Part shown: piece after piece, positions 433-17,193 of the stretch | Position numbering within the stretch: the stretch's first letter is position 1 | Layout of the letters: the number at the start of each line of letters is the position of its first letter | From: Maribacter arcticus | GTDB taxonomy: Bacteria > Bacteroidota > Bacteroidia > Flavobacteriales > Flavobacteriaceae | Assembly: GCF_900167935.1 (NCBI RefSeq) | Contig: NZ_FUYL01000007.1 | Coordinates: 1 to 64,000, forward strand | Direction: 5' to 3' | DNA: 64,000 nt | The notes under the pieces: generated by a model | Database searches by the model: none | Seen by the model: only the letters and a program-made list of their open reading frames with translations | Told to the model about the DNA's origin: nothing | Position numbers and translations under genes: made by a program

Positions 433-728
433 CTGGACATATCATCCATGACGATGAAGTTGAAATTGGACCATTTCAACTCCGGTTGATGTTTGGGGAT
501 TCCTGGGAGGAAGACATCCATATTTTTATCCACTCCTTCTTTTGTGATTGTGAAGATGACAATAAAAAACTGGTCAATTATAAAAGTTATATCAACAATT
601 TAAATGATGTAACTTTAAAAGGATGGTGCAGCTCATCCAAGACAATTGCCACTAGATATATTGAAACTGGTGAGCGACCTGGAATTGAGAAAGTTAGCAA
701 CAGGATTAGGAAACTCAATAAGAACTAA
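414..728 (+). CDS. Hypothetical protein, probably lacking its true N-terminus
   Basis: The frame begins with GTG at 414 inside the transposase remnant; the first ATG is at 489 (residue 26). The residues between (VEIGPFQLRL) look like genuine protein, so the original start was probably lost when the transposase fragment arrived. The product would be about 104 residues, acidic in the middle (FFCDCEDDNKK) and basic at the C-terminus, with no family I recognise. The TAA stop (726-728) is the first three bases of the first clear cassette repeat, as in other units downstream. Confidence 0.5.
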   Translation: MDLLYLTGHIIHDDEVEIGPFQLRLMFGDSWEEDIHIFIHSFFCDCEDDNKKLVNYKSYINNLNDVTLKGWCSSSKTIATRYIETGERPGIEKVSNRIRKLNKN

Positions 729-744
729 AGTTCAAATAAAGGAT
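726..744 (+). repeat. Cassette-boundary repeat, copy 1
   Basis: Exact consensus TAAAGTTCAAATAAAGGAT. It contains the TAA stop of the gene at 414-728. This is the first of 13 clear copies, all in the same orientation, between 726 and 12418. Confidence 0.85.
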
Positions 745-874
745 AGTTTTAGTGCCACTTATGAAGATTGATATCTCTTTTAGGCATATGGGTTATAACC
801 GTATGTGGTCATCTAATTTTTCCTAACGCTTAAGTACTTGTTATTAAGAAGTTAAAACCATAAATGTTCAACAT

Positions 875-1696: not shown

Positions 1697-1837
1697 TAAT
1701 GCAGAATTACTTAAAAGTTCTTTTTTGCACCGTTAAACTATCTCTCCGTTTGAAGACATACACCTTGAATAGAGATATTGGACGCAACCATCGACCCCAT
1801 TGTCAATAGGCTCTGTAAATGGAAACTTTGAAGAGCA

Positions 1838-1856
1838 TAACGTTCGGACAAACGAT
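1838..1856 (+). repeat. Decayed cassette-boundary repeat
   Basis: TAACGTTCGGACAAACGAT matches TAAAGTTCAAATAAACGAT at 15 of 19 positions. It lies 11 nt before the ATG of the epimerase gene, the same placement as the clear copies, so I read it as a diverged boundary between the DUF1080 gene and the epimerase gene. Confidence 0.5.
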
Positions 1857-1867
1857 ATCAAATAAGT

Positions 1868-2827
1868 ATGAAAGCGATTGAAAAAAAAATTCTGGTTACT
1901 GGAGCCACCGGAAAGGTAGGAGAGGCTTTTATTAACGCCTTTTTTGGTGACCCAAAACAAAAAGGAACCATAAGAGCCTTATGTCATCAGCGCAGTTTAA
2001 CCCCCAATAACCGTTTGGAGGTTATCCATGGTTCAATATCCGACCGGCCAACTGTACAAAAGGCCATGAAGGATATCACTCATGTGGTCCACTTGGCCAC
2101 CACTAAGGAAGATTCTGAAACAATTATGGATGTTGCGATAAAGGGATTATTCTGGCTATTGGAAAGTTGTAGGAATACCAGTGGTTTCAAACGCTTTATA
2201 TTGATTGGAGGAGATGCAGCTTTAGGACATTATTTTTATCCGTACAAAAACCCGATCAATGAGCAGCAGGCCCATGCCGCATATCCTGGATGTTATGCAT
2301 TGTCAAAAGTGCTTGAGGAAACTATGCTGCAACAATATTACGTGCAATACAACCTTGATGGTACCTGTCTTCGTGCACCATGGATAATGCAAGGGGAAGA
2401 TTTAAAGAAGCACCTTACATTTGGGAAACAGGTATTTGGTGTACCTGTATGGCACAAAATGATTAAGGCCCAAACCGCGTTGGAATATCAAAAAGAGAAT
2501 ATCATTCCTCTCATGCTCGATGCAAATGGAAACCCAATGAAAAGGAATATTGTGCATATGAACGACCTTGTATCCGCTATATGCATCTCTTTGGATCACA
2601 TCGAGGCAAGACAGCAAACCTTCAATATATCCATGGACGAGCCATTTAATTATGGGAAAGCAGCCTATTATCTTTTAAAAACTCGTAAGATTAAATCGGT
2701 AAAGATGAAAACGAAATACCATTCTACATGGCTTGATAACACTAAAGCAAAATTTTTACTTGGATGGCGGCCAGAATACGGATTAGAGAAAATCATAGAT
2801 GAGGCTTGGGGGAATGTCTCCTTATGA
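1868..2827 (+). CDS. NAD-dependent epimerase/dehydratase family protein (extended SDR)
   Basis: The 319-residue product carries an N-terminal Rossmann fold with GATGKVG (residues 12-18) and an SDR active-site YxxxK motif in CYALSKVLEE. Its length and C-terminal FLLGWRPEYGLE region are typical of nucleotide-sugar epimerases and reductases. It has no signal peptide, so it is cytosolic. The substrate is unknown, but the flanking sugar-related cargo suggests a sugar or sugar acid. A possible decayed repeat lies 4 nt after the stop. Confidence 0.85.
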   Translation: MKAIEKKILVTGATGKVGEAFINAFFGDPKQKGTIRALCHQRSLTPNNRLEVIHGSISDRPTVQKAMKDITHVVHLATTKEDSETIMDVAIKGLFWLLESCRNTSGFKRFILIGGDAALGHYFYPYKNPINEQQAHAAYPGCYALSKVLEETMLQQYYVQYNLDGTCLRAPWIMQGEDLKKHLTFGKQVFGVPVWHKMIKAQTALEYQKENIIPLMLDANGNPMKRNIVHMNDLVSAICISLDHIEARQQTFNISMDEPFNYGKAAYYLLKTRKIKSVKMKTKYHSTWLDNTKAKFLLGWRPEYGLEKIIDEAWGNVSL

Positions 2828-2831
2828 CACT

Positions 2832-2849
2832 TTAGGTTCATTAAGGATG
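2832..2849 (+). repeat. Possible decayed cassette repeat
   Basis: TTTAGGTTCATTAAGGAT resembles the cassette repeat if a short gap is allowed (GGTTCA--TTAAGGAT). It follows the epimerase stop codon by 4 nt, which is where a repeat would be expected. The match is weak and could be chance. Confidence 0.25.
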
Positions 2850-2974
2850 GTGTACGTTAACTTCAATCACGATTCTTGGATCTTTTTGGTAACTTCGAAA
2901 TCCATCTTCTATGGAATACATTCGGTACACTTAAGCCTTAGGAAATAATGGAGATGTGATTCTTGAGAATAATT

Positions 2975-2993
2975 GAAAGTTCAAATAAGTGAT
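2975..2993 (+). repeat. Cassette-boundary repeat, copy 2
   Basis: GAAAGTTCAAATAAGTGAT, differing from the consensus at the first base and at two bases near the 3' end. It separates the epimerase unit from the TIM-barrel lipoprotein at 3025. Confidence 0.8.
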
Positions 2994-3024
2994 CAATAAA
3001 CTAAATACATAAACATGAATCAAT

Positions 3025-4137
3025 ATGAATTCAAATATTAAATTCTGTTCTCGATACATTTTACTTTGTGCTACTCTATGGCCATTATTATTTATGTCCT
3101 GCGAACAAAAAACTGCTGAAACCTTTGAAATTAGGGGTGTTTATGGTAATCCCAAACCTTTCTGGGATAAAGGATTCAGTCTTACTGAGCTTGGGGTTAA
3201 TGCTATTTTTGTCCACAGCGGATCGATCAACCATGATATGGTTAACAGGGCCAGATCTGAGGGAGTAATGGTATATGCTGAATTTGCCACCTTGAATGGT
3301 AAAAATTATGTAGAAACGCACCCTGAAGCCTGGGCAATCAATGAAAAAGGTAAAAAAGTGCAAGCTGCATCCTGGTTTATGGGGGTTTGTCCTACCGAAC
3401 CCGGTTTCCGTCAGTATCGTTTTGGCCAGTTGCAGGATTTACTTTTGGAGTATGACCTGGATGGTATTTGGATGGACTATGTGCATTGGCATGCCCAGTT
3501 TGAAGAACCTGAACCCATCTTGCCCGAAACCTGTTTTTGTGATCATTGTCTTGATGTTTTTTCAAAAGATTCCGGGATTGAAATCCCGGACGGAATCACC
3601 TCGGACAAGGCACAATGGATACTCAATAATCAGGATGAATCATGGCGTAATTGGCGATGCAAGGTGATTTATGATTGGACCTATGAAATAAAAAGCATTA
3701 TCAAGGAAATCAGACCAAAGGCGCTCCTTGGACTTTATCATTGTCCATGGGATGATCAGGAATTCAATGGTGCAAGACGCCGCATACTGGGACTCGACTA
3801 TAATCTATTAAAAGAAACTATCGATGTATTTTCTCCTATGGTATACCATGGTAGAATGGGAAGAGAGCCCGATTGGGTAAAAGAGAATATACGATGGTTT
3901 AGCAATCGACTAAATATCAAAAAGGATTCTTATCCAAAAGTATGGCCCATCGTTCAAGCATATAACAACCCAGGGGTCATTTCCAATGAGGAATTTGAAA
4001 TTGTTCTGAAAGGTGGCCTGGCAGGAGAATCTAGCGGAGTGATGATGTTCACAACTTCTGCCATAGCTGAGGATAAAGGTAAAACAGAAGTGATGAAAAA
4101 AGTGTATACCAACCTAACGGAAGAATCAGATAACTAG
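3025..4137 (+). CDS. Lipoprotein with putative glycoside hydrolase TIM barrel
   Basis: The product has 370 residues with a lipoprotein signal (LLFMSC, Cys26). The body reads as a (beta/alpha)8 barrel of the putative glycoside hydrolase (GHL) type. It has a strand ending DLDGIWMDYVHW that carries acidic residues where such enzymes place catalysis, then LLGLYHCPW and IDVFSPMVYHGRMGRE. I infer a periplasm-facing carbohydrate-active enzyme; neither substrate nor catalytic residues can be fixed. It is a single-gene unit between repeats at 2975 and 4215. Confidence 0.7.
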   Translation: MNSNIKFCSRYILLCATLWPLLFMSCEQKTAETFEIRGVYGNPKPFWDKGFSLTELGVNAIFVHSGSINHDMVNRARSEGVMVYAEFATLNGKNYVETHPEAWAINEKGKKVQAASWFMGVCPTEPGFRQYRFGQLQDLLLEYDLDGIWMDYVHWHAQFEEPEPILPETCFCDHCLDVFSKDSGIEIPDGITSDKAQWILNNQDESWRNWRCKVIYDWTYEIKSIIKEIRPKALLGLYHCPWDDQEFNGARRRILGLDYNLLKETIDVFSPMVYHGRMGREPDWVKENIRWFSNRLNIKKDSYPKVWPIVQAYNNPGVISNEEFEIVLKGGLAGESSGVMMFTTSAIAEDKGKTEVMKKVYTNLTEESDN

Positions 4138-4214
4138 ATTATACAAGTCTTTATCTAAACTAACAATTAATTTACATCATCATTTTCTTGGTAAGATGAT
4201 AGGGTGTCTATCAA

Positions 4215-4233
4215 AAAAGTTCAAATAAACGAT
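4215..4233 (+). repeat. Cassette-boundary repeat, copy 3
   Basis: AAAAGTTCAAATAAACGAT. The next gene's ATG (4239) begins exactly 5 nt after its last base. Confidence 0.85.
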
Positions 4234-4238
4234 TGTAT

Positions 4239-4442
4239 ATGAATTTGAAATCGATTGTATATAAACTAGTTTCTTATTTACTTGTAACCTTTATATTAAG
4301 TGATATCTTAATAATAGTAATCTACATATTAAAGGATTATGGAGAGCCTACAAGTCTAGAAAACATTAATAAGACCATATTGATTTTTCTGCCTATCACA
4401 ATCGTTCTTATTATCTTAGAAAGGATTTTCAGAAAAATTTAA
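4239..4442 (+). CDS. Small membrane protein, 67 residues
   Basis: I chose ATG at 4239 over the in-frame TTG at 4233, because 4233 is the last base of the repeat. The product is very hydrophobic with two predicted membrane segments (LVSYLLVTFILSDILIIVIY and IFLPITIVLIILERIF) and a basic tail (RKI). I recognise no family. It is the only gene of its unit: the start lies 5 nt after one repeat and the TAA stop (4440-4442) runs into the next. Confidence 0.65.
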   Translation: MNLKSIVYKLVSYLLVTFILSDILIIVIYILKDYGEPTSLENINKTILIFLPITIVLIILERIFRKI

Positions 4443-4459
4443 AAGTTCAAATAAAGGAT
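4441..4459 (+). repeat. Cassette-boundary repeat, copy 4
   Basis: AAAAGTTCAAATAAAGGAT; it overlaps the stop codon of the small membrane gene by two bases. Confidence 0.85.
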
Positions 4460-4485
4460 GAGTTAGGACACCGTGTCGTAAATCG

Positions 4486-4504
4486 TAGAGTTCAAATAAA
4501 GGAT
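4486..4504 (+). repeat. Cassette-boundary repeat, copy 5
   Basis: TAGAGTTCAAATAAAGGAT. Only 26 nt separate it from copy 4, so the unit between them is empty. Confidence 0.85.
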
Positions 4505-4597
4505 AGTTAAAACCCTGCCATCGATATAATAAGATGGCGTAATAGCCTCATTGATTGCTAAATGACTACCTTTCATTGTATAACCTCATATACCATC

Positions 4598-5020
4598 ATG
4601 TTCAACCTTGTGTATCGATCAAAGGTAAATCCCGTTTTCGTGCAGTCCCAGATTAAATATATGCTTGAACATGCTAGAACTTTTAATAGCAGTAAAAATA
4701 TTACGGGTTGTCTGCTCTTTCATCATGGGGTATTTTTACAATATTTAGAAGGAGATAAAGAAAAGGTATTAACCCTTTTTGAAAGCATCAAAAAAGACAA
4801 GCGTCATACGGAGGTATTTTTACTATCCTCTAGCCATATCTATTCAAGAGAGTTTGATAGTTGGAGCATGGCCTATGAGAATTTCCTTGGGGCAAATCAT
4901 CAATTGGAATATCTAAAACTCTTAATAAGCTCGTTTACGGAAGTTCCAGATATTGCCATAAATCCAAAACCAACTTCGAAAGGCTTTTGGACCGCTGCGA
5001 AAAAGTTACTACACTCCTAA
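4598..5020 (+). CDS. BLUF-domain (blue light, FAD-binding) protein
   Basis: The product reads as a single BLUF domain of about 140 residues. It has an N-terminal strand FNLVYRSK whose Tyr fits the flavin-contacting tyrosine, a helix with NITGCLLFHHGVFLQYLEGDKEKV, and the later strand FDSWSMAYENF. BLUF domains bind FAD and sense blue light. There is no output domain, so it is a short sensor that must act through a partner. I prefer ATG 4598 because BLUF proteins start just before this strand; an upstream ATG at 4562 would add 12 residues. It is the sole gene between repeats at 4486 and 5028. Confidence 0.85.
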   Translation: MFNLVYRSKVNPVFVQSQIKYMLEHARTFNSSKNITGCLLFHHGVFLQYLEGDKEKVLTLFESIKKDKRHTEVFLLSSSHIYSREFDSWSMAYENFLGANHQLEYLKLLISSFTEVPDIAINPKPTSKGFWTAAKKLLHS

Positions 5021-5027
5021 ACACAAG

Positions 5028-5046
5028 AAAAGTTCAAATAAAGGAT
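5028..5046 (+). repeat. Cassette-boundary repeat, copy 6
   Basis: AAAAGTTCAAATAAAGGAT, 7 nt after the BLUF gene stop and exactly 5 nt before the next ATG at 5052. Confidence 0.85.
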
Positions 5047-5051
5047 TACTT

Positions 5052-5429
5052 ATGATTGAAATAGCGGGTATTTGGAAAATCAAAAGTTCTTCGAAAAGAA
5101 TAGTGTTCCACGAGTCACACAACCACACCGGGGAATCGATTTTATGGAATATGGAAAAAATGACTTTAGAAATTGAAAAAAACTCTGAAGATTTTTACAT
5201 TTTCAATTTGAAAGGAGTTGCAAGTTTACAGTTTGCGGATAACAAAAAAAGGTTTGTAGCTGAATATCAAAAAACTATTGTAAGAATCGAAAAAGGGTTT
5301 TTCATTCATCATAATTATTGGTCTAGAGAATTCATTTTTAAAAAAGCTATAATCAACCAAACAAGGAATTCTTTTTCAACTGAAATAAATGACATGATGG
5401 TAACATTTGAAAAGAATTTGACGTCCTGA
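5052..5429 (+). CDS. Hypothetical protein, 125 residues, beta-rich
   Basis: I do not recognise this protein. It is soluble, has no signal peptide and alternates short hydrophobic strands with charged turns (EIAGIWKIKSSSKRIVF, DFYIFNLKGVASLQF, KTIVRIEKGFFIHH). This suggests a small beta-barrel or lipocalin-like fold, an inference from pattern only. The ATG lies 5 nt after repeat copy 6. A decayed repeat separates it from the gene at 5456. Confidence 0.6.
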   Translation: MIEIAGIWKIKSSSKRIVFHESHNHTGESILWNMEKMTLEIEKNSEDFYIFNLKGVASLQFADNKKRFVAEYQKTIVRIEKGFFIHHNYWSREFIFKKAIINQTRNSFSTEINDMMVTFEKNLTS

Positions 5430-5448
5430 ACAAGTTTTAATAATGGGT
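5430..5448 (+). repeat. Possible decayed cassette repeat
   Basis: The stretch around CAAGTTTTAATAATGG matches the 19-base repeat at about 13 of 19 positions, directly after one stop codon and 7 nt before the next ATG. It is probably a diverged boundary between the two small genes. Confidence 0.3.
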
Positions 5449-5455
5449 AGAAAAT

Positions 5456-5659
5456 ATGTCTGAGTTAGAATTAAAAAGTGGGAAAACTTTTTGCTTCATT
5501 GATCAATACGAAACTTTAGAAGCTAGGATAGTTTACGGCAAAACACTTGAAGGAACCAATGCATTCAAAATTTGGGTAAATGGTAAGCCCATATTAATAA
5601 CTAAAATATTCACATCCGTTGATGATAAACTAAAAGAATTGATTTCGAGATACAGTTAG
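5456..5659 (+). CDS. Hypothetical protein, 67 residues
   Basis: A small soluble protein (begins SELELKSGKTFCFIDQYETLE) with no signal peptide, no membrane segment and no family I recognise. It contains an FKIWVNGKP strand-turn and a charged C-terminal helix (DDKLKELISRYS). It follows the 5052 gene by 26 nt, and its stop lies 6 nt before repeat copy 7. Confidence 0.5.
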   Translation: MSELELKSGKTFCFIDQYETLEARIVYGKTLEGTNAFKIWVNGKPILITKIFTSVDDKLKELISRYS

Positions 5660-5665
5660 AAGAAG

Positions 5666-5684
5666 TAAAGTCTAATTAAAGGAT
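5666..5684 (+). repeat. Cassette-boundary repeat, copy 7
   Basis: TAAAGTCTAATTAAAGGAT, a variant with CT in place of TC after AAAGT and one further change in the centre. Confidence 0.8.
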
Positions 5685-5749
5685 GGGCAGCATAACACCT
5701 TGCCAAAGCCACATAGAAAATTTCTATTATCTAAAAAAATCAAATTGTT

Positions 5750-5878
5750 ATGGAAAAGAGCCGAAGTAAATTTGGACGATTTATATCTAAACCGAACAAC
5801 TTACAATTTTTATGGATATTTGTGATCGTGCTATTTTTTGTTGTCGTGGGTGTTTTTATGCTCTTAAAGTCCGATTAA
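5750..5878 (+). CDS. Tiny single-pass membrane protein, 42 residues
   Basis: ATG at 5750 opens 42 codons ending in TAA at 5876-5878. The N-terminus is basic (MEKSRSKFGRF), followed by one long hydrophobic segment (LWIFVIVLFFVVVGVFMLL) and a short LKSD tail. This is a textbook single-span small protein that is easily missed by length cut-offs. Its stop codon is the first three bases of the next repeat, the same stop-in-repeat arrangement seen at 726, and it is the only coding frame of its unit. Function unknown. Confidence 0.6.
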   Translation: MEKSRSKFGRFISKPNNLQFLWIFVIVLFFVVVGVFMLLKSD

Positions 5879-5894
5879 AGTTCAAATAAATGAT
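5876..5894 (+). repeat. Cassette-boundary repeat, copy 8
   Basis: TAAAGTTCAAATAAATGAT, containing the TAA stop of the 42-residue membrane gene. Confidence 0.85.
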
Positions 5895-5941
5895 TATATC
5901 TATACACTTATTTATTAATTTTTAACTTAGTCTTATAAACA

Positions 5942-5978
5942 GGATAGCATCATTGATGCTATCCCATTGTTAGCGGTA
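5942..5978. repeat. Perfect hairpin plus left copy of a 12-bp inverted repeat
   Basis: GGATAGCATCA (5942-5952) and its exact complement TGATGCTATCC (5954-5964) form an 11-bp stem with a 1-base centre. TTGTTAGCGGTA follows at 5967-5978; its exact reverse complement lies at 6983-6994, beyond the gene at 6014. The pair frames that gene like the ends of a nested insertion. Confidence 0.6.
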
Positions 5979-6013
5979 ATGATTTACATAACACCCAAAA
6001 ATTGATTGTAAGT

Positions 6014-6916
6014 ATGGATAAGAAAAGAAGAGATTTATTACGTAGCCTGGCACTAGCACCTATTTTATTAGGTTCTCCCAGCCTCTTCGCAAGCCCATTA
6101 ATTAAAACCTTAGCCCCGTCCAGATTACAATATAGCATCAATGCATTTACTTTCAATTCATTGCTAAGAAGTGGTGAAATGACATTTTTTGATATGATGG
6201 AGTTTGCCTCTATGCTTGGTTTAAATGCAGTTGACTTAACAGGCTATTATTTTTCTGATTATCCTAAAATACCCGATGATAAAACATTGTTTCAATTAAA
6301 GAAGAAAGCATTGCAATTAGGATTAAATATTTCATGGACAGGGGTAAGGAATAACTTTGTAAATCATGATAAAACTTCAAGAGAATCTGATATTGAATTG
6401 ATAAAAAATTGGTTGCAAGTATCATCAAAACTTGGAGCTTCAATTATGCGAATTTTTGCAGGAAATGGAAAACACGAAGGATATTCGAGAGACGAGGTTA
6501 AAAAATGGATGGTTTCAGACTTCCAAGAGTGTGCCAAATATGCAGAAGAAACAGGAGTTATTGTAGCCATGCAACATCATAATGATTTTTTATATGAAGC
6601 CGATGAGGTTATCGATATTTTAAAAAGAGTAGATTCGGAATGGTTTGGATTAATTTTAGATATTGGTAGTTTAAGAATAGGCGATCCTTATAAAGAAATT
6701 CAAAAATTGGCACCCTACGCAAATTACTGGTTTATAAAAGAACTGGTTTATGTTAATGGCATTGCGGAACCTGTTAATATGAAAAAAATCGCCAGAATAT
6801 TAAAAGATGCAAACTATACTGGTTACATTTCTTTCGAAAGCTTGACCGACGGCGACCCAAAACAAATTGTAACTTCTATGTTTAATGATTTTAGAACAGA
6901 GTATGAAAAACTCTAA
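6014..6916 (+). CDS. Tat-exported sugar phosphate isomerase/epimerase-like TIM barrel
   Basis: I chose ATG 6014 over an in-frame TTG at 6002 because it opens a clear twin-arginine signal (MDKKRRDLLRSLALAPIL). The mature part is an AP endonuclease 2/xylose isomerase-like TIM barrel of about 270 residues. Candidate metal and substrate ligands lie in GVIVAMQHHNDF, FGLILDIGSLRIGDP and YTGYISFESLTDGDP, in the order seen in family members. It is probably a periplasmic sugar isomerase or epimerase; substrate unknown. A 12-bp perfect inverted repeat brackets it (5967-5978 and 6983-6994). Confidence 0.8.
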   Translation: MDKKRRDLLRSLALAPILLGSPSLFASPLIKTLAPSRLQYSINAFTFNSLLRSGEMTFFDMMEFASMLGLNAVDLTGYYFSDYPKIPDDKTLFQLKKKALQLGLNISWTGVRNNFVNHDKTSRESDIELIKNWLQVSSKLGASIMRIFAGNGKHEGYSRDEVKKWMVSDFQECAKYAEETGVIVAMQHHNDFLYEADEVIDILKRVDSEWFGLILDIGSLRIGDPYKEIQKLAPYANYWFIKELVYVNGIAEPVNMKKIARILKDANYTGYISFESLTDGDPKQIVTSMFNDFRTEYEKL

Positions 6917-6982
6917 AAATGAAGGTAACCAAGCACATTCTACAAATGGAAATATTATTTTATAATCATGAGATTTGAAAAA

Positions 6983-7025
6983 TACCGCTAACAAAAAATA
7001 AACGCCATTAAAACGGACGTTTATT
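6983..7025. repeat. Right copy of 12-bp inverted repeat plus hairpin
   Basis: TACCGCTAACAA (6983-6994) is the exact reverse complement of 5967-5978. Just after it, AATAAACG (6997-7004) pairs with CGTTTATT (7018-7025). The mirror arrangement on both sides of the gene at 6014 suggests element ends. Confidence 0.55.
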
Positions 7026-7114
7026 CAAACCGTTTGCAGTAATTAATGCAACAACTAAACTAATAAAAAGTGTAGGACTTACTAAGAGTGTAGTTAGAAC
7101 GAGAAAACTTACAA

Positions 7115-8020
7115 ATGGCAGAACAAAAAGATTTAGATTTTACATATACCACTATTGACGAGATATTCCGTTTGAGTATGGGGGAATCAGGGGATTACAG
7201 TGGAGCGAAATATGATGGTAATTTTTCGATGTCATTGGAAGAAGCCCAAAAGGCAAAACACAAATTCATAGCGGATAGTCTCAACATTACCAAAGGCAGC
7301 AAAGTACTTGACATGGCTTGTGGTTGGGCGCCTTTCATTCGATATATTATACATGAAAGAAATGCAGAAAGTATAGGTTTGACACTCTCACAAGGGCAGG
7401 CGGATGCCTGTCAAAAGAATGGTTATAATGTGATGGTGAAAGATTGTCGCTATGTAAAACCGGAGGACTTTGGAACTTTTGATGCAATAACCTGTATTGG
7501 GGGATTGGAGCATTTCTGTTCGGTTGAAGAGTGGCAGGCAGGCAAACAGAAGGAAGTTTATCGCGATTTTTTTAAAACGGTCCACGATTTGTTGCCGGTT
7601 GGTGGGCGGTTTTATATGCAGACGATGACCTTCAGTAAGAATATGATCGAATTTGAGGAACTCGACGTAAATGCTAAAAAAGGATCTGCGGCCTATGTGA
7701 TGGCACTCATGGTAAAGGAGTTCCCAGGTTCCTGGCTTCCGTATGGCCCCGAAATGGTCATCAAATGTGCGGAACCCGGATTCAAACTAATATCCCAAAG
7801 CAGCGGAAGGCTTGATTATATTGAAACCATTGCTCAATGGCGGAAGAAATTCAGAAAATTTAATCTTAAAAAATATTGGCTTTACCTATCACTTATTCCA
7901 AGATATTTCACAGATATGGAATTCAGGCACCTTGTGGCTATTTTCAAAGTAAGCCCCAACAAGGTCTGTTTTGAAAAAGAGGTTATGGATCATTACCGAT
8001 TGGTTTTTGAGAAAGTTTAG
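7115..8020 (+). CDS. SAM-dependent methyltransferase, cyclopropane-fatty-acid-synthase-like
   Basis: The 301-residue protein has the class I methyltransferase glycine loop (KVLDMACGWAPFIRYI) and the CFA-type preceding region (GESGDYSGAKYDGNFSMSLEEAQ). The acceptor-side motif AITCIGGLEHFCSVEEW follows. CFA-like enzymes methylate unsaturated acyl chains or small lipophilic acceptors; this one is shorter than true CFA synthases (about 380-420 residues), so the acceptor is open. It is cytosolic. It lies between the inverted-repeat gene and repeat copy 9. Confidence 0.75.
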   Translation: MAEQKDLDFTYTTIDEIFRLSMGESGDYSGAKYDGNFSMSLEEAQKAKHKFIADSLNITKGSKVLDMACGWAPFIRYIIHERNAESIGLTLSQGQADACQKNGYNVMVKDCRYVKPEDFGTFDAITCIGGLEHFCSVEEWQAGKQKEVYRDFFKTVHDLLPVGGRFYMQTMTFSKNMIEFEELDVNAKKGSAAYVMALMVKEFPGSWLPYGPEMVIKCAEPGFKLISQSSGRLDYIETIAQWRKKFRKFNLKKYWLYLSLIPRYFTDMEFRHLVAIFKVSPNKVCFEKEVMDHYRLVFEKV

Positions 8021-8088
8021 CGATAAAAAAACCAAAAAAATAACAACTGCCAACAAAACCTCCTATGAAAAGCCTTAGTCCGGTTCTC

Positions 8089-8107
8089 TAAAGTTCAAAT
8101 AAACGAT
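8089..8107 (+). repeat. Cassette-boundary repeat, copy 9
   Basis: TAAAGTTCAAATAAACGAT; the next ATG (8113) begins exactly 5 nt downstream. Confidence 0.85.
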
Positions 8108-8112
8108 AACTA

Positions 8113-8298
8113 ATGAATAATTCACAGACGGGTGCATTAGGTCTATTTTTTATGGTAGTGGCTATAATAATACTTGGTATAAATGCCATATTTGGAGATT
8201 TAAGCAAGAATGGTTTTTTTGGGTTTATGATGCTAATTTTTTTAGTGGGTCTTGTATTATTTTGGAGCAGCGGAGGATTCAGTTCTAATAAAAAATAG
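8113..8298 (+). CDS. Small membrane protein, 61 residues
   Basis: Two hydrophobic segments (LGLFFMVVAIIILGINAIFG and FFGFMMLIFLVGLVLFW) are joined by a short charged turn (DLSKNG). The tail is GGFSSNKK. The topology matches the other tiny membrane proteins of this region (4239, 8768), but the sequences are not evidently related. No family recognised. It is the only gene of its unit; the start is 5 nt after one repeat, and one base separates its TAG stop from the next. Confidence 0.65.
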   Translation: MNNSQTGALGLFFMVVAIIILGINAIFGDLSKNGFFGFMMLIFLVGLVLFWSSGGFSSNKK

Positions 8299-8299
8299 A

Positions 8300-8319
8300 T
8301 GAAGTTCAAAATAAAGGAT
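8300..8319 (+). repeat. Cassette-boundary repeat, copy 10
   Basis: TGAAGTTCAAAATAAAGGAT, with one extra A in the A-run. It heads the cassette that is partly duplicated at 12401. Confidence 0.85.
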
Positions 8320-8337
8320 CAATAATATAATGATATA

Positions 8338-8703
8338 ATGGAAACCAATAGCCCTAAAGATGAATATATTGTAAGCCTTAAGTTTTTCATTTCATCCGCC
8401 TTAGCAGATATTGATATAGTGCTTTTACAAAATTTGAGTCAAACGGGGGATAAAACGGAAGTCTTTACAGTTCAGCAAATAAGAGACCAATTGAAAGATA
8501 CAGCACTAAAAATAAGCGAGGTTGCTGATAAATTCAACATCAACAATGAAGCAAGCTTACTTGGTCCATTTGGCTTATGTCCAGAGCACTTATTAACTAA
8601 TAAAGAAAAAGAAACTGCAATTAAGAAATACTTATTGAGCCTAAAAAAAGACCCAAATAGAAGTCTATTTAACGAATTAGGTGGTGCTGAAACGTTACTT
8701 TAA
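8338..8703 (+). CDS. Hypothetical protein, 121 residues (full copy of the duplicated cassette)
   Basis: A soluble, mostly helical protein with no recognised family. Its features are KFFISSALADIDIVLLQNLSQ near the start, then QQIRDQLKDTALKISEVADKF, and a low-complexity ending LFNELGGAETLL. The start is the second ATG after the repeat; an ATG at 8330 hits a stop after one codon. The first 14 codons and the leader are repeated almost exactly at 12419-12477, where the copy is cut off. Confidence 0.6.
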   Translation: METNSPKDEYIVSLKFFISSALADIDIVLLQNLSQTGDKTEVFTVQQIRDQLKDTALKISEVADKFNINNEASLLGPFGLCPEHLLTNKEKETAIKKYLLSLKKDPNRSLFNELGGAETLL

Positions 8704-8721
8704 TATTAATCAAAACTCAAT

Positions 8722-8740
8722 TAAAGTCTAAATAAACGAT
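8722..8740 (+). repeat. Cassette-boundary repeat, copy 11
   Basis: TAAAGTCTAAATAAACGAT, 18 nt after the preceding stop and 27 nt before the next ATG. Confidence 0.8.
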
Positions 8741-8767
8741 GAAATACCAGGTTACGAAAAATATAGA

Positions 8768-8986
8768 ATGAGCATCATTGGGAAGATAGCGTTTATATTG
8801 ACTGTCGGAATTGTCATATTTATTTGGAACAAATATGCAATTCAAATGATGATTGGCAAAGTTGTCAAGAAGAACCCTAAAAATAAATGGTTGGCCGAGA
8901 AAAAGAGTATAATTACTAAAGGCTTTCAAGGGTTCTACTGGTTATTTTATGTATTATTCACGATAGCTATATTATCTTCTGATTAA
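8768..8986 (+). CDS. Small membrane protein, 72 residues
   Basis: Two hydrophobic segments (IAFILTVGIVIFIWNKYAI and FYWLFYVLFTIAILSS) flank a strongly basic loop (GKVVKKNPKNKWLAEKKS). This suggests a hairpin in the inner membrane with the loop inside the cell. No family recognised. The TAA stop (8984-8986) runs into the next repeat. Confidence 0.6.
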   Translation: MSIIGKIAFILTVGIVIFIWNKYAIQMMIGKVVKKNPKNKWLAEKKSIITKGFQGFYWLFYVLFTIAILSSD

Positions 8987-9003
8987 AAGTTCAAATAAAG
9001 GAT
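8985..9003 (+). repeat. Cassette-boundary repeat, copy 12
   Basis: AAAAGTTCAAATAAAGGAT, overlapping the stop codon of the 72-residue membrane gene by two bases. Confidence 0.85.
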
Positions 9004-9080
9004 AATTAAACCCGTGAGAAACCGCCTTGAAGGTGTGCGTTTTTTCATTATTTTTAATCGGATTAAAATTCTTAAGTCGT

Positions 9081-12000
9081 ATGCAGCTATTAAAATCGTT
9101 CAAAGTCATTTTCACTGTTGGAGTACTACTAGGTATTGGGATACAAATTTCATGTTCTGAAAAGGCCACAAGAACAATCGATTATACCATGCTTTCCGAA
9201 AAGGAAAAAAGAAAGCCCGAAAATGCGCTTTCCTCGATGGAGGTTGCCGATGGATTAAAATTGAGCTTGTTCGCATCTGAACCAATACTGGCCAACCCAA
9301 CGAATATGGCCATTGATTCCAAGGGAAGGATTTGGATTTGCGAAGGCACGAATTATAGGGATTTTTCCAATCCCGATATATCGTATGATAATGAGGGAGA
9401 CCGAATTTTAATTTTGGAGGACACCGATCATGACGGGGTAGCCGATACTTCCAAAGTTTTTTATCAGGGTAAGGATGTAAATTCAGCCTTGGGGATTGCC
9501 GTTTTAGGGAGTAAAATCATTATTTCGGTAAGCCCGAATGTTCTTGTTTTTACAGATGAAAATGGTGATGATGTACCCGATTCCAAAGAAATTTTGTTTT
9601 CAGGCATCGAAGGCGTAGATCACGACCATGGTGTGCATGCTTTTGTTTTTGGCCCTGATAGCCGCCTCTACTTTAATTATGGTAATAACGGGAAACAGTT
9701 GTTGGATAAGGATGGGAATGCCATAAAGGACATCCATGGAAATAATATCATTGCCGACGGAAGTAACTATCGTGAGGGTATGGCCTTTCGTATGGAAATG
9801 GATGGTTCTAATATCGAAGTTTTAGGCCACAATTTTCGGAATCCCTACGAGCTTGCAGTGGACTCTTACGGCGGACTCTGGCAATCGGACAATGACGATG
9901 ACGGTAACCGAGGCACCCGAATCAACTATTTGATGGAATATGGTAATTATGGCTATAAGGATGTACTAACCGGTAAAAACTGGCGTGAAAGAAGAACAGG
10001 GTGGGAGGACGAAATCCCCAAAAGACATTGGCATTTGAACGATCCAGGTACGGTGCCCAATCTATTGCAGACCGGTTCAGGATCACCGTGCGGAATTACG
10101 GTTTATGAAGACGAGCTACTTCCCGAAAAATATCAAGGCCAATTGATCCATGCCGAACCGGGTCATAATGTGGTGCGAAGCTATATGGTGGAAGAAAAAG
10201 GTTCAGGGTATACCGCTATAGTCGAAAATCTGATCAAGAGTAAGGATGACTGGTTTCGACCAGACGATGTTACGGTAGCCCCCGATGGCTCACTATTTAT
10301 CTCCGATTGGTATGATGGTGGTGTGGGAGGCCACAAAGCGGAGGATATTCGACAGGGAAGAATCTATCGCTTATCAACAAAAGAAGGCTATACCCCCAAG
10401 ACCTTCGATTTCAATAGCGGAGCGGGTGCTGCGGAAGGTTTACTTTCGGGTAATATGGATGTATTCTACCAATCGTGGCAAAAATTAAACGCCATGGGAG
10501 ATGCTGCTGAGCCTTACTTAAAGGAAATGATTGCCAAAGGAGGAACAGGCAAGGCAAGGGCTTTATGGCTCGGGGCAAAAAACCCTTCAAAGACCAAGAC
10601 ATATATTGAAATGGCCCTGACGGATACGAACGCTAAATTTCGATTGCAAGGCATACGAATGGCGAGATATCTTGCCAAGAACGAGTTGGAGCGGTATTTG
10701 GAAATAGTAGCAACCGATTCCTCTCCTCAAGTACGAAGAGAAGCCGCAATAGCTTTACGGTATCTGGGAACGAAAAAGGCTGCCGAGTTGTGGGCTACAC
10801 TGGCCGAACAACACGACCCGGCAGATCGTTGGTCTTTGGAAGCTTTGGGAATTGGTTCCGACAAGTTTCCGAATCTGTATTTTTCCGCTTGGAAAGAAAA
10901 TACGGGAAATGATTGGATGGATGAAAAAGGAAAACAAATCGTATGGCGTACAAGGGCTTCGGCTACTATACCGCTTTTGGCGGAAATGATCAAGGATGAC
11001 GCTATATCCGAAGAGGATATGGCTTCCTATTTCAGGGCTTTCGATTTTAAGGATCACCCAAAAAAAGATGAAATATTACTTGCCTTGTTAAGCGAGGAAC
11101 ATCCTAAAATAAAAAGTATACAGGCGTATGTTGTTGGCCAATTAAATGAAGATTTTGTAAACAATTCCCGAAAACATACCCTGACGGTCAAAAATGTACT
11201 GCCCAAAATTGAAGGTACTGCGGAATGGCTGATGGCGGTTAAAAAACTTGGACTAAAAAATCAAACAAATAATATTTTCGAGTTGGTGCGGAAAGGTAAT
11301 GATGAAGCACTCCGGAAGGAGGCCGTCGTAGTTTTATTCGATTTTGATGGAGACCAACTCGTAGAAGACTACCTAAAATCCGATGCGCCGGAGGCCGAAA
11401 AGATGGAGGTGCTCGGTATTATGAGCGGTGTTTCCGGTCAGAAAGCCATTGCATTGCTAAAAGGCATATTGATGGAGGATACCTTGAACTACCCATTGAC
11501 CCGCAGGGTGGTGGAAGTTTTAGGAAATTCTGGTGGGGGACAAAAGGAACTTTATGAGTTGCTTGAAGCAGGAAAACTGCCTGATGCCCATAAGACGACA
11601 GCCGTATTGAAATTGATGAATAGTTGGAATTCGGAGATCAGGGAAAACGCCCCTAAGTTCCTAGAAGGTTCGGCTTCGGAAGATCTAGACGTAGATGCCT
11701 TGGTGGAACGCTCAGGCGATGCCGTACACGGAAAGGAGCTTTATAACACCTATTGTAGTTCGTGCCATATCGCAGGTCCTACTGGTGTTGAATTCGGTCC
11801 GGCCCTCTCCGATATCGGCAATAAGCTTTCCAAACAATTTTTGTATTCCAATATCATCTACCCAAGTGCCGGCATCAGTTTCGGGTATGAAGGCTATACG
11901 ATTAAAATGAGGGATGGTACGACCTATAATGGTTACATCTTAAGCCGTGCCGAAGACGAGCTGGTTCTGAAAATGATGGGAGGTGCACAGAGGGAAATCG

Positions 12001-12149
12001 AACTTGCCGACATAGTTGCCCAAGAAGCCATGGAAAAATCGTTGATGACCGAAGGTCTGAATAAAGTAATGTCGGAAGAAGATCTGGTCGATCTAGTGGA
12101 GTACCTAGGCACTTTAAAAGTTGAGGAGGATGTAGTGGATTTGAATTAA
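9081..12149 (+). CDS. Large lipoprotein: membrane-bound dehydrogenase domain, HEAT-like repeats and cytochrome c
   Basis: I chose ATG 9081, which opens a lipoprotein signal (IGIQISCSEK); an in-frame TTG at 9027 would place extra residues before it. The 1022-residue product starts with a beta-propeller sugar/sorbosone dehydrogenase-like domain (ANPTNMAIDSKGRIWICEGT, VTVAPDGSLFISDWYDGG). HEAT-type helical repeats follow (SSPQVRREAAIALRYLG), then a C-terminal haem c domain with CSSCH at residues 892-896. This PVC-type architecture is known from Planctomycetes and Bacteroidota and suggests periplasmic oxidation of a sugar or alcohol with electrons passed to a cytochrome. It is the largest unit of the cassette region. 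Confidence 0.85.
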   Translation: MQLLKSFKVIFTVGVLLGIGIQISCSEKATRTIDYTMLSEKEKRKPENALSSMEVADGLKLSLFASEPILANPTNMAIDSKGRIWICEGTNYRDFSNPDISYDNEGDRILILEDTDHDGVADTSKVFYQGKDVNSALGIAVLGSKIIISVSPNVLVFTDENGDDVPDSKEILFSGIEGVDHDHGVHAFVFGPDSRLYFNYGNNGKQLLDKDGNAIKDIHGNNIIADGSNYREGMAFRMEMDGSNIEVLGHNFRNPYELAVDSYGGLWQSDNDDDGNRGTRINYLMEYGNYGYKDVLTGKNWRERRTGWEDEIPKRHWHLNDPGTVPNLLQTGSGSPCGITVYEDELLPEKYQGQLIHAEPGHNVVRSYMVEEKGSGYTAIVENLIKSKDDWFRPDDVTVAPDGSLFISDWYDGGVGGHKAEDIRQGRIYRLSTKEGYTPKTFDFNSGAGAAEGLLSGNMDVFYQSWQKLNAMGDAAEPYLKEMIAKGGTGKARALWLGAKNPSKTKTYIEMALTDTNAKFRLQGIRMARYLAKNELERYLEIVATDSSPQVRREAAIALRYLGTKKAAELWATLAEQHDPADRWSLEALGIGSDKFPNLYFSAWKENTGNDWMDEKGKQIVWRTRASATIPLLAEMIKDDAISEEDMASYFRAFDFKDHPKKDEILLALLSEEHPKIKSIQAYVVGQLNEDFVNNSRKHTLTVKNVLPKIEGTAEWLMAVKKLGLKNQTNNIFELVRKGNDEALRKEAVVVLFDFDGDQLVEDYLKSDAPEAEKMEVLGIMSGVSGQKAIALLKGILMEDTLNYPLTRRVVEVLGNSGGGQKELYELLEAGKLPDAHKTTAVLKLMNSWNSEIRENAPKFLEGSASEDLDVDALVERSGDAVHGKELYNTYCSSCHIAGPTGVEFGPALSDIGNKLSKQFLYSNIIYPSAGISFGYEGYTIKMRDGTTYNGYILSRAEDELVLKMMGGAQREIELADIVAQEAMEKSLMTEGLNKVMSEEDLVDLVEYLGTLKVEEDVVDLN

Positions 12150-12399
12150 AAAACCGATTTGTCTCCTTTAAAAGCAGATTCAAGTTGAGTTGGATGAACA
12201 AAGAAAAGTGAATACCATACCGCTTGAGTACAATTTGTTGCAGATAAATTAGAATAACTAAATAATTCCGAGCAGAGGAACTTCACTCAAAAATAACTGC
12301 TGCGCTGGACCTTAGTCAGACGGAATAAAAATGAAAACGGAAAAGTATGTGCTTAAACCACGCGGCGCTTCTGATTACAACAAAGAATTGAGCTGTAAC
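12150..12399. other. Non-coding stretch after the large lipoprotein gene
   Basis: No convincing gene. A short frame from 12331 (begins MKTEKYVLKPRGASDYNKEL) runs into repeat copy 13 and may be a remnant of a lost cassette gene. No terminator hairpin was seen. Confidence 0.4.
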
Positions 12400-12418
12400 C
12401 AAAGTTCAAAAAAAGGAT
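12400..12418 (+). repeat. Cassette-boundary repeat, copy 13
   Basis: CAAAGTTCAAAAAAAGGAT, the last clear copy. It heads the truncated duplicate of the 8338 cassette. Confidence 0.8.
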
Positions 12419-12477
12419 CAATAATATAATGATATAATGGAAACCAATAGCCCTAAAGACGAATATATTGTAAGCCT
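12419..12477 (+). pseudogene. Truncated duplicate of the 8338 cassette
   Basis: Together with its repeat (12401-12418), this matches 8301-8378 at about 75 of 78 positions, including the leader and first codons (METNSPKDEYIVSL). Similarity stops abruptly after TAAGCCT. Upstream of the repeat, 12381-12400 shows no similarity to 8281-8300, so the left edge of the duplication is the repeat itself. Confidence 0.85.
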
Positions 12478-12983
12478 GTTTCAATCGGTACGCCATTACT
12501 TAGGGTTTCCTTAGAAAATTAGAAATGAAAGTCGTGCAGTTTCGCGAACTTGACCAGAATAAATAACGTCTTTCTCTTTCTAAACTCTTTGGTTTTGCGT
12601 TATTGGCATATATCTAAACCCCTATGTGTTTAATGTCTATTCACTATCCTTCTTTTTGATTGATTTATTAGCGATATGGAAATTTCATCTAGAATTTTGA
12701 TTCTACCATTTTTCTATGTCTAATTTGCATATCAGTTTTGCAAGAATTCCATAAATTGAAATTAAATAGGTTTTTGAAACACTTGACGAATAAATAATAT
12801 AGATTGATATGTTTTGTATCCATTTATTGAAGTACCTTTAAATATACGAATGATTTCGAGGCAAAAGTTACCTATTCGGTTACCTGATAAGTTTAAAAAA
12901 CCTGTAATTATTTGATAATAAGAGCATTGAGGTTTGGTGGGTTAGTTCTGTCATCCCGACGAAGTGGCTATCAAGGCGGACCA
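12478..12983. other. Gene-free stretch with likely decayed remnants
   Basis: About 500 bases without an open frame worth calling. The first bases after the truncated cassette can be read as FQSVRHYLGFP before a stop, possibly a scrap of another gene. The rest is AT-rich with no repeat copy. Confidence 0.4.
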
Positions 12984-16137: not shown

Positions 16138-16324
16138 TTATTGTTAGTATTTATAAGTCATGCCTAAGTGATACTTATTCTTTCCTTCTTGCAACCGAAC
16201 ACTCAATTTTTCGGATTAAAAAAGAGCAGAATTTTTATTTTTCACTAGTCTATTTGCTGTTTGCTCGTTAAGGCACAAAGTTTACACTTTTTAGGTTATA
16301 ATTTGAGATTAAAATCAAATTATT

Positions 16325-16423
16325 ATGCCTTGGAAAGAAACAACAACTATGGAACAAAAAATTGAATTCATCTGTGAATGGCGTACAGGAAAATATACCA
16401 TTACAGAATTATGCAAAAGCTTT
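16325..16423 (+). pseudogene. N-terminal fragment of an IS481-like transposase
   Basis: ATG at 16325 opens a frame beginning MPWKETTTMEQKIEFICEWR and continuing GKYTITELCKSF, the helix-turn-helix start of IS481/IS3-group transposases. After about 33 codons the homology stops and the frame drifts into unrelated residues until TAA. The rest of the transposase is gone. It lies in an otherwise gene-free 400-base gap (16138-16536). Confidence 0.75.
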
Positions 16424-16536
16424 TTGTTTTGTTTAAATTTTTGTTGCCAGAGCAAAATCCTAAAGATTTTGCGGACACTTTAAATATACGCTTACTTTCG
16501 ATTAAACACCAAACTCCGCATTACTTATAGGTATTG

Positions 16537-17193
16537 TTATCTCTTGTTTTTATCGAGTTCGTGTAAATTAATAAACACATTTTTGGTTAAAGATTTACTG
16601 TCAATTGGAAGTTTCGTCCAAACCATTCGAGTACTATCAGGACTTTTTAATAAATCAATTTGTCTGAATTCAGTAAGTAGTCCAATTATTGTATCATTAT
16701 TGTTTTTAAAATCAAAATCCACGTAATTTTGATTTTTTGATTTAAAGGATATAACCTCTTTTTTGTCAAGTATTGAATTCACAAAATCTAATGTTAGTTC
16801 CTTTTCCGTTACCGAGTCTTTTATAGAGAAGTCCAATTCAGAATACAATGTTATTCGTCCTTTTATGATACTGTCTTTAGCCATTTTAGCTTCAAATTCA
16901 TAAAAGTTGCTTTTAGTAATGTCAAGAATACCGTTTTTATAAATTTTCTTATTCCAACAAAGTGTGTCTCCATACTCAGATATATACAATTCTAGTTCAC
17001 TTGTTATTACTCCGTTGTCATCAACGTATTTAACCCATTTTTTTTGATATTCAGTCAATTCAGAGTTGGTTGATTCAATTAGAGAGTCCTTAAGAATCTC
17101 TGCCTTATTTTCGCTTTTGGAATCGGATTTATTGATGCAATTCCAATTGAGAATTCCAATGACTAATATCGATATGTATATTTTATTTTTCAA
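16537..17193 (-). CDS. Putative lipoprotein of unknown function
   Basis: A 218-residue protein with a short hydrophobic N-terminus ending in NWNCINK; Cys19 is a plausible though unusual lipidation site (Asn at -1). The mature part is charged and beta-rich, ending in HELDKNKR. The start is TTG at 17193, with no ATG nearby. The bases spanning this start (TTCAAATAAAAGAT on the + strand, 17189-17202) resemble the cassette repeat, possibly by chance. No family recognised. Confidence 0.6.
   Translation of the reverse strand: MKNKIYISILVIGILNWNCINKSDSKSENKAEILKDSLIESTNSELTEYQKKWVKYVDDNGVITSELELYISEYGDTLCWNKKIYKNGILDITKSNFYEFEAKMAKDSIIKGRITLYSELDFSIKDSVTEKELTLDFVNSILDKKEVISFKSKNQNYVDFDFKNNNDTIIGLLTEFRQIDLLKSPDSTRMVWTKLPIDSKSLTKNVFINLHELDKNKR

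What the first reader, a model, noticed from the sequence alone, without database searches (positions are those of the whole stretch)
8300..12477. Duplicated cassette whose similarity starts exactly at the repeat
12401-12477 repeats 8301-8378 at about 75 of 78 positions. Sequence upstream of the repeat is unrelated at the two places, so the left edge of the duplication is the repeat itself. This is the strongest evidence that the repeat is a recombination boundary and not merely a regulatory signal. The second copy is cut off after 59 bases of cassette body, so it is a dead end or the scar of a later deletion.
Basis: seen in the sequence. Interest (0 to 1): 0.75.

Follow-up and report, generated by a model that had tools for sequence, protein, structure and literature searches.

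The report
Integron-like cassettes with a serine recombinase
Marine bacteria related to this one carry rows of small mobile genes joined at a short DNA tag that looks like half of a binding site for a resolvase-type enzyme, which may be a second, independently evolved way of building the gene collections known as integrons.

Summary
The repeat is real: 8302-8378 and 12402-12477 match at 97%, the only two copies in the genome. Both begin with an 18-bp tag, AAAGTTYAAATAAASGAT, found 13 times on the plus strand in window 727-12418 (and by eye). The tag separates cassettes; homologous cassettes elsewhere start and stop at it. The segment after 12418 recurs at 99% in another species, joined to a different upstream sequence at the tag's last two bases, AT. 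So the tag is a recombination boundary, but the second copy is no dead end.

In Flavobacteriaceae a small serine recombinase (resolvase/invertase family) lies upstream of such arrays: tags follow 21 of 26 recombinase loci examined, 114 on the gene's strand and 0 on the other. Upstream of 22 of 26 genes lies the tag's 16-bp core, inverted; shuffling predicts 0.4. The tag thus looks like one half-site plus the 2-bp crossover core of that enzyme. I read this as an integron analogue built on a serine recombinase. Activity is inferred, not shown. The window's genome has no such enzyme at E<=1e-25; its array is an orphan.

The parts
727..744 (+). tag (16-bp half-site + AT), 0 mismatches
2976..2993 (+). 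tag, 2 mismatches
4216..4233 (+). tag, 0 mismatches
4442..4459 (+). tag, 0 mismatches
4460..4504 (+). 45-bp mini-cassette with its tag at 4487-4504 (1 mismatch)
   Evidence: similar units in G028 and G015
5029..5046 (+). tag, 0 mismatches
5667..5684 (+). tag, 2 mismatches; left edge of a cassette shared with G028 (5667-5896 = L013 7254-7481, 92%)
5877..5894 (+). tag, 1 mismatch
8090..8107 (+). tag, 0 mismatches; left edge of a cassette shared with G028 (8089-8319 = L013 6106-6335, 96%)
8300..8318 (+). tag with a 1-base insertion; start of the first copy in the finding
8319..8740 (+). first copy: cassette with a 121-aa ORF (8338-8703, no Pfam match) and its 3' tag at 8723-8740
8986..9003 (+). 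tag, 0 mismatches
9004..12418 (+). cassette with a large DUF7133/GSDH + HEAT + cytochrome c ORF (9081-12149) and its 3' tag
12401..12418 (+). tag, 1 mismatch; start of the second copy in the finding
12417..12964 (+). right-most segment (59-bp body stub plus further sequence), present at 98.9% in G015:C2:787-1337 after a different upstream sequence

Best explanation
The two copies are units of an integron-like cassette array. A cassette is a body (usually one or two genes on the array strand) with a tag at its 3' end. The tag is one 16-bp half-site (AAAGTTYAAATAAASG) of a small serine recombinase plus the 2-bp crossover core AT. The recombinase gene sits at the 5' end of intact arrays, behind an inverted copy of its own half-site. 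Recombination at AT between tags in direct repeat would release a cassette as a circle or insert it; recombination with a stray AT elsewhere would make new joints such as the one in G015. Shown here: tags bound cassettes, the same cassettes have different neighbours in different genomes, tags have one polarity, they accompany the recombinase, and inverted half-sites stand before it. Inferred: that this enzyme does the work, that AT is the core, and that circles are the intermediate. The window holds an orphan array without the enzyme.
For: Cassette homology between genomes runs from tag start to tag end, with different neighbours. The segment after 12418 is joined to another partner at AT in G015. 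Tags follow 20 of 26 recombinase loci within the stretch held and an array starts 11 kb downstream of one more (L164). Two of the 26 (L172, L103) were the discovery loci; of the other 24, 19 have arrays. There are 114 tags on the gene's strand and 0 on the other in 363,960 bases; the reversed pattern gives 0 and 0. The inverted half-site stands upstream in 22 of 26 at <=3 mismatches, 0.395 expected. All 21 loci with an array have it at <=4 mismatches; the 3 of 26 loci without it (L208, L213, L214) have no array; the other 2 without an array (L167, L199) have it and lie about 1 kb from a contig end. Four loci of a 40%-identical recombinase have no tag at all. L164 has a full dyad with a 2-bp centre. 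AT follows 77 of 80 near-perfect half-sites downstream of the gene. At joints without a tag AT occurs in 7 of 17, P 0.0007 for an AT frequency of 0.097. Recombinase-gene fragments begin right after tags in L071 and L067. The enzyme's nearest solved relatives are DNA invertase and gamma-delta/Tn3 resolvase.
Against: No circle, empty site or activity was seen; three attempts to find an empty site failed. The core at the recombinase's own site is AC (18), GT (3) or GC (2) of 23, not AT. Cassette tags show no second, inverted half-site on the right. Half-site bases follow the upstream body only weakly: 7 of 20 pairs identical, against 2 of 28 for the downstream body and 14.5% at random; Fisher P 0.02, pairs not independent. 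10 of 17 tag-less joints do not have AT. The window's genome has no such recombinase at E<=1e-25. Several array genomes of the genus lack it too. Three recombinase genes carry stops and L103 has lost one arginine of the KLDRxxRS motif. A perfect tag elsewhere in this genome arose by drift.
Confidence: 0.78

Rival explanations
1. Another enzyme acting in trans (a tyrosine recombinase or an IS91/IS607-type transposase) moves the cassettes, and the serine recombinase is only a neighbour or a first cassette.
For: Many arrays have no recombinase beside them, including the window's. Tyrosine recombinases are present in all 36 genus genomes. One array (L057) lies near a tyrosine recombinase and a protein that looks, by eye, like an IS91-type transposase.
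Against: Half-sites identical in pattern to the tag stand at a fixed distance before the serine recombinase gene, and tags are confined to its downstream side and strand. No common other recombinase was seen at array edges that I read.
Confidence: 0.09
2. Ordinary homologous or illegitimate recombination between 18-bp repeats shuffles the cassettes, without a dedicated enzyme.
For: Half-site bases are re-assorted relative to both flanks, as crossovers at several places inside the tag would do.
Against: 18 bp is short for RecA-dependent exchange (general knowledge). Joints to sequences with no tag share only AT. The recombinase association and the inverted half-sites remain unexplained.
Confidence: 0.07
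3. A canonical integron array (tyrosine integrase IntI, folded attC sites).
For: Same general layout: one-way array of small units, mostly one gene each, many toxin-antitoxin-like pairs, orphan arrays.
Against: Integron integrase model TIGR02249 over its cut-off in 0 of 36 genomes. Alignment of 118 sites shows information only inside the 18-bp block, with no paired flank.
Confidence: 0.02
4. The tag is only a regulatory signal (promoter, terminator or ribosome-binding region) that happens to precede genes.
For: It sits between genes on the coding strand, and AAAGGA resembles a ribosome-binding sequence (by eye).
Against: Cassette homology breaks at the tag on both sides. It bounds units without room for a gene, such as 4460-4504, and stands inverted before the recombinase.
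Confidence: 0.03

Closest known systems
Integrons and their gene cassettes (IntI / attI / attC), including orphan arrays without integrase
   Same: One-way arrays of exchangeable units with the site at the 3' end of each unit, recombinase at the 5' end, orphan arrays (integron features recalled).
   Different: Serine instead of tyrosine recombinase; an 18-bp site with no conserved flank or hairpin; the recombinase gene points the same way as the array.
Small serine recombinases: Tn3/gamma-delta resolvases with res sites, DNA invertases (Gin, Hin)
   Same: Enzyme family by sequence (PF00239); inverted half-sites around a 2-bp centre before the gene.
   Different: Those resolve cointegrates or invert a segment (recalled); here single half-sites punctuate long cassette arrays.
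IS607-type serine transposases and large serine integrases of mobile elements
   Same: Serine recombinases that insert DNA at a 2-bp core, in the IS607 case with little target sequence (recalled).
   Different: Different protein subfamilies by recall; not tested here by a tree. They do not build arrays of separate gene cassettes (recalled).
pdif (Xer) modules of Acinetobacter plasmids
   Same: Short sites flank exchangeable gene modules (recalled).
   Different: 28-bp tyrosine-recombinase sites in alternating orientation (recalled); here 18-bp tags, all in one orientation downstream of the recombinase.

Membership tests
Integron | Integron-type tyrosine recombinase (IntI) | tested here: not met
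   TIGR02249 over cut-off in 0 of 36 genus genomes; weaker hits are other tyrosine recombinases.
Integron | attC sites with paired R and L boxes (folded single strand) | tested here: not met
   In 118 aligned sites the flanks carry almost no information; I did not run a fold test on the sites.
Integron | One-way cassette array with recombination at the 3' site of each cassette | tested here: met
   114 of 114 tags on one strand downstream of the recombinase; half-site not linked to the downstream body (2 of 28).
Small serine recombinase (resolvase/invertase) | Resolvase catalytic domain with conserved serine and arginine motifs | tested here: met
   PF00239 at 1e-28 to 1e-42 for three proteins; alignment to 1gdt and 4m6f; YxRVST and KLDRxxRS motifs in most intact members (catalytic roles recalled).
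Small serine recombinase (resolvase/invertase) | Crossover site of two inverted half-sites around a 2-bp centre | tested here: inconclusive
   Met before the gene (L164 full dyad; right half in 23 of 26 at <=4 mismatches); not met at cassette tags, which have one half-site.
Serine-recombinase cassette array (proposed here) | Recombinase-dependent excision and insertion at AT | not testable with these tools
   Needs an experiment.
pdif (Xer) module | 28-bp dif-like sites in alternating orientation | tested here: not met
   Conserved block is 18 bp and 0 of 114 downstream tags is on the opposite strand.
IS607-type serine transposon | IS607-type transposase subfamily | not tested
   No tree was built; nearest solved chains are resolvases and invertases.

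The most novel reading that the evidence does not exclude
The integron design arose twice. Flavobacteriaceae have a cassette-capture system driven by a resolvase-family serine recombinase that recombines single half-sites at an AT core. The platform's own left site has a different core (AC, GT or GC), so the recombinase is not lost with the cassettes. The first cassette is joined at the 3' end of the recombinase gene, so each insertion there rewrites the enzyme's last residues. The arrays store anti-phage and toxin-antitoxin genes.
Probability: 0.55. Interest if true: 0.95.

Novelty: categorically new. Interest (0 to 1): 0.86.

Why it matters
Known integrons depend on tyrosine recombinases and folded single-stranded sites (recalled). 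A serine-recombinase counterpart would show that the integron design can arise from an unrelated enzyme. It would open a catalogue of mobile defence genes in marine Bacteroidota and an 18-bp one-way joining site for DNA engineering. It also asks how a serine recombinase can work where only one half-site is conserved, and it makes the old question of how cassettes are born testable: recombinase-gene fragments and stray AT joints are visible in the arrays.

Tried and rejected
Integron integrase: TIGR02249 over cut-off in 0 of 36. Rfam (gathering) and tRNA scans of the window found nothing. Phage origin: the 18-bp pattern hit 21 viral contigs, each with a single site; a longer pattern (tag plus NANTT) hit 49 genome stretches, 35 with two or more sites on one strand, so the viral hits look like chance.

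Lone perfect tag at G000:C12:453817: an alignment with three relatives shows an ancestral spacer that drifted into the motif, so it is not a cassette site (two further relatives were left out because they did not align on the same strand). Any-tag presence is a weak marker: 22 of 36 genus genomes have at least one match at <=1 mismatch.

Empty-site searches: the DUF2723 and GAF-gene loci are too variable; the flank of the G029:C39 platform has no strong relative in the genus. Recombinases 40% identical to the query (L168-L171) have no tag in 18-20 kb.

A first crossover test with looser pairs showed the half-site unlinked to either flank; the stricter one shows weak linkage upstream. One search kept only sites ending in AT, so it says nothing about AT; its pairs are not independent (one cassette gives 6 of the 28). 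In one search three of 20 rows were out of register and left out of the count of 17.

Literature: ten searches of the held PubMed Central library, listings only, no paper read. 'serine integron', 'Maribacter' + 'gene cassettes', and 'Bacteroidota' + 'cassette array' + 'resolvase' gave 0 papers; no listed title describes such a system. Most subscription journals and all preprints are outside it.

Dropped rows: one search scanned 91 of 130 ORFs inside arrays; 39 were left out by hand, chiefly those on the opposite strand and some shorter ones. One search scanned 78 of 81 flank ORFs. One family hit (G403:C13:405327, partial) was not fetched.
Full report
CHECK OF THE OBSERVATION. Window 12402-12477 repeats 8302-8378 at 97.4% over 77 columns. 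There is no third copy in the 4.21-Mb genome. Upstream the two places are unrelated; downstream the similarity stops at 8378 / 12477. The shared stretch begins with an 18-bp tag, AAAGTTYAAATAAASGAT. Within 3 mismatches the tag occurs 12 times on the plus strand in 727-12418, plus once with a 1-base insertion at 8300-8318 (by eye). With up to 3 mismatches to AAGTTCAAATAAACGATA the window has 11 matches against 0.28 expected in shuffles. In the whole genome 27 matches at <=2 mismatches compare with 9 for the reversed pattern.

THE TAG BOUNDS CASSETTES. Sixty genomes were searched for the tag at <=1 mismatch. In the window's genus the numbers range from none to 27 on one strand (G028); G029 has 19 and 15. 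G028 contig lengths 163,882 and 47,533 equal those of Maribacter litoralis SDRB-Phe2 contigs, so the genus is probably Maribacter (inference). Alignment of 118 distinct sites, chosen at <=1 mismatch, shows information in 18 positions and almost none outside. Cassettes shared between loci, with different neighbours, match from tag start to tag end: window 8089-8319 = L013 6106-6335 at 96%; window 5667-5896 = L013 7254-7481 at 92%; L016 10665-11607 = L023 7246-8188 at 96.5%. Not all shared stretches are bounded this way; several are chromosomal flanks. Units have a median length of 665 bp (325 units at <8 kb between sites). In units of 150 bp or more the longest ORF is on the array strand in 195, on the other strand in 80, and below 40 aa in 38.

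THE FINDING'S OWN TEST. No match listed from 36 genus genomes does so, apart from the window itself (list cut). Window 12417-12964 is found at 98.9% in G015:C2:787-1337, preceded there by a reading frame that looks by eye like an ABC-transporter permease, in place of the tag. The bases shared at the joint are AT, the last two of the tag. The truncated body is thus part of a longer segment known from two species.

WHERE THE BREAKS FALL. Among pairs of sites with the same downstream body (>=90% over 40 bp) and different upstream sequence, the five variable half-site bases agree in 2 of 28. With the same upstream body and different downstream sequence they agree in 7 of 20. Random pairs agree in 14.5% (sites pre-filtered for AT; pairs not independent; Fisher P 0.02). 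So the half-site does not travel with the downstream body, and a cassette is body plus 3' tag. Linkage upstream is weaker than one fixed crossover predicts: of the 6 pairs with identical upstream 40 bp, 4 have the same half-site, one differs at one base and one (L075 / L163) at four. I cannot explain this. A scan for bodies joined to something other than a tag gave 20 rows, 17 in register. AT stands at the joint in 7 of the 17 (AT frequency in these loci 0.097; P 0.0007); the other 10 have AC (2), GT (2), TT (3), TC, TA and AA. Two of the 7 and three of the 10 are copies of the recombinase gene; without them 5 of 12 have AT (P 0.004).

THE ENZYME. Two arrays, in G007 (L029, later L172) and in an Aquimarina genome (L103), have a small serine recombinase upstream, on the same strand. 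L071 (Arenibacter) and L067 carry fragments of the same gene, of which three begin right after a tag. A genus-wide search found the protein at E<=1e-25 in 6 of 36 genomes: G007, G029, G015, G028 and G009 at 50% identity or more, and G014 at 40%. All six have tag matches, but G009 has only three, and 22 of 36 genus genomes have at least one. The four 40%-identical loci fetched have no tag in 18-20 kb. In the family the protein occurs at E<=1e-42 in 15 of 397 genomes, 21 hits, of which 20 were fetched. I examined 26 loci: 2 discovery loci, 4 from the genus, 20 from the family. Tags (<=2 mismatches) follow the gene within the stretch held in 20; in one more (L164) the first tag is 11 kb downstream, at G028:C6:142131. 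So 21 of 26, or 19 of the 24 that were not discovery loci. Those without are L167 and L199, about 1 kb from contig ends, and L208, L213 and L214. Over 363,960 downstream bases there are 114 tags on the gene's strand and 0 on the other; the reversed pattern gives 0 and 0. Some loci come in pairs from one genome, so the 26 are not fully independent.

THE HALF-SITE. Upstream of the gene the tag's 16-bp core occurs inverted: in 22 of 26 loci at <=3 mismatches (0.395 expected from dinucleotide shuffles), and in 23 of 26 at <=4 mismatches, 124-187 bp before the matched start, with centre AC in 18, GT in 3 and GC in 2. L208, L213 and L214 lack it, and they also lack arrays. In L164 a good left half faces it: AAAGTATAAACAAACG-AC-CGTTTTTATAAACTTT. 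Elsewhere the left half is degenerate, and sequence further left looks unrelated between loci. This is the layout of a serine-recombinase crossover site, two inverted half-sites around two bases (family knowledge), and it suggests that the array tag is one half-site plus a core. AT follows 77 of 80 half-sites (<=1 mismatch) downstream of the gene and 297 of 328 in the wider set. To the right of cassette tags there is no inverted half-site: the score there is not better than at other offsets.

THE PLATFORM. Between recombinase loci, DNA similarity on the right mostly ends within about 30 bp of the recombinase stop codon (L209/L211 and L172/L199 run further, and L201 has an early stop). The last few residues of the protein differ between loci. 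I infer that the first cassette is joined at the end of the gene. The protein matches Resolvase PF00239; the nearest solved chains are DNA invertase 4m6f and gamma-delta and Tn3 resolvases. Three of the 20 family loci have stops in the gene.

CARGO. Against PADLOC at E<=1e-10, 91 cassette proteins match 389 models and 78 flank proteins match 54. Models are redundant, so these are not protein counts; 91 of 130 and 78 of 81 available ORFs were given. Pfam shows type I restriction subunits, OLD-like nucleases and Fic proteins, two to four members each. The window's own cassettes look metabolic (3-keto-disaccharide hydrolase, epimerase, CMAS-type methyltransferase) and include a BLUF protein.

MECHANISM. 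Proposed: the recombinase joins directly repeated tags at AT, releasing cassettes as circles and inserting them at other tags; occasional use of stray AT sites makes new joints and new cassettes. The platform's left site has another core, so it would not be excised with cassettes (inference). Shown: boundaries, exchange of neighbours, polarity, linkage to the enzyme, half-site identity. Inferred: catalysis, core, circles, and the end of the gene as entry point.

LIMITS. No empty site, circle or activity was observed. The window's genome has no such enzyme at E<=1e-25, so its array is an orphan. That no such system is in print rests on ten searches of open-access papers, listings only.

Noticed in passing
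window 4460-4504; L013 10588 and 12097; L163 15347: A 45-bp mini-cassette (GAGTTAGGACACCATGTCGTAATTCGT plus tag) with a small dyad recurs in arrays of several genomes; too short for a gene.
   Followed up: partly
window 8048-8107 and L020, L012, L085, L082, L092, L102: Different cassettes share the last 40-50 bp before the tag (ATGAAAAGCCTTAGTCCAGTTCTCT...), as if the 3' ends form families of their own.
   Followed up: no
window about 16280-16553: Stretches of about 125 bp match at 71-98% in most genomes of the genus, in many places: a dispersed repeat (query 7331-7604).
   Followed up: no
G000:C12:453817-453833: A perfect tag that arose by drift in an ancestral spacer upstream of a TlpA-like gene; a close relative has a near match.
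   Followed up: yes
L099 413-3843 and L074 60-2880: Arrays on opposite strands lie side by side in two genomes.
   Followed up: no
L016 9840-13206 (G014): An array lies just upstream of genes that look, by eye, like conjugation genes of an integrative element.
   Followed up: no
L103 145-774 (Aquimarina): This array-linked recombinase reads KLDRIVGS where the others read KLDRLARS, losing an arginine thought catalytic (role recalled); it may be inactive.
   Followed up: no
G007:C1, eight places: Eight copies of a 298-aa tyrosine recombinase with identical scores in one genome, probably a transposon-like family.
   Followed up: no
window 49-432: The window starts at the contig end (C20:1) with a partial reading frame that looks by eye like a transposase; the array's true 5' end is missing from the assembly.
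   Followed up: no
window 9081-12149: A large DUF7133/GSDH, HEAT and cytochrome c protein, of a kind I associate with Planctomycetes (recalled), travels in this array; 67% DNA matches in G023, G002 and G031.
   Followed up: no
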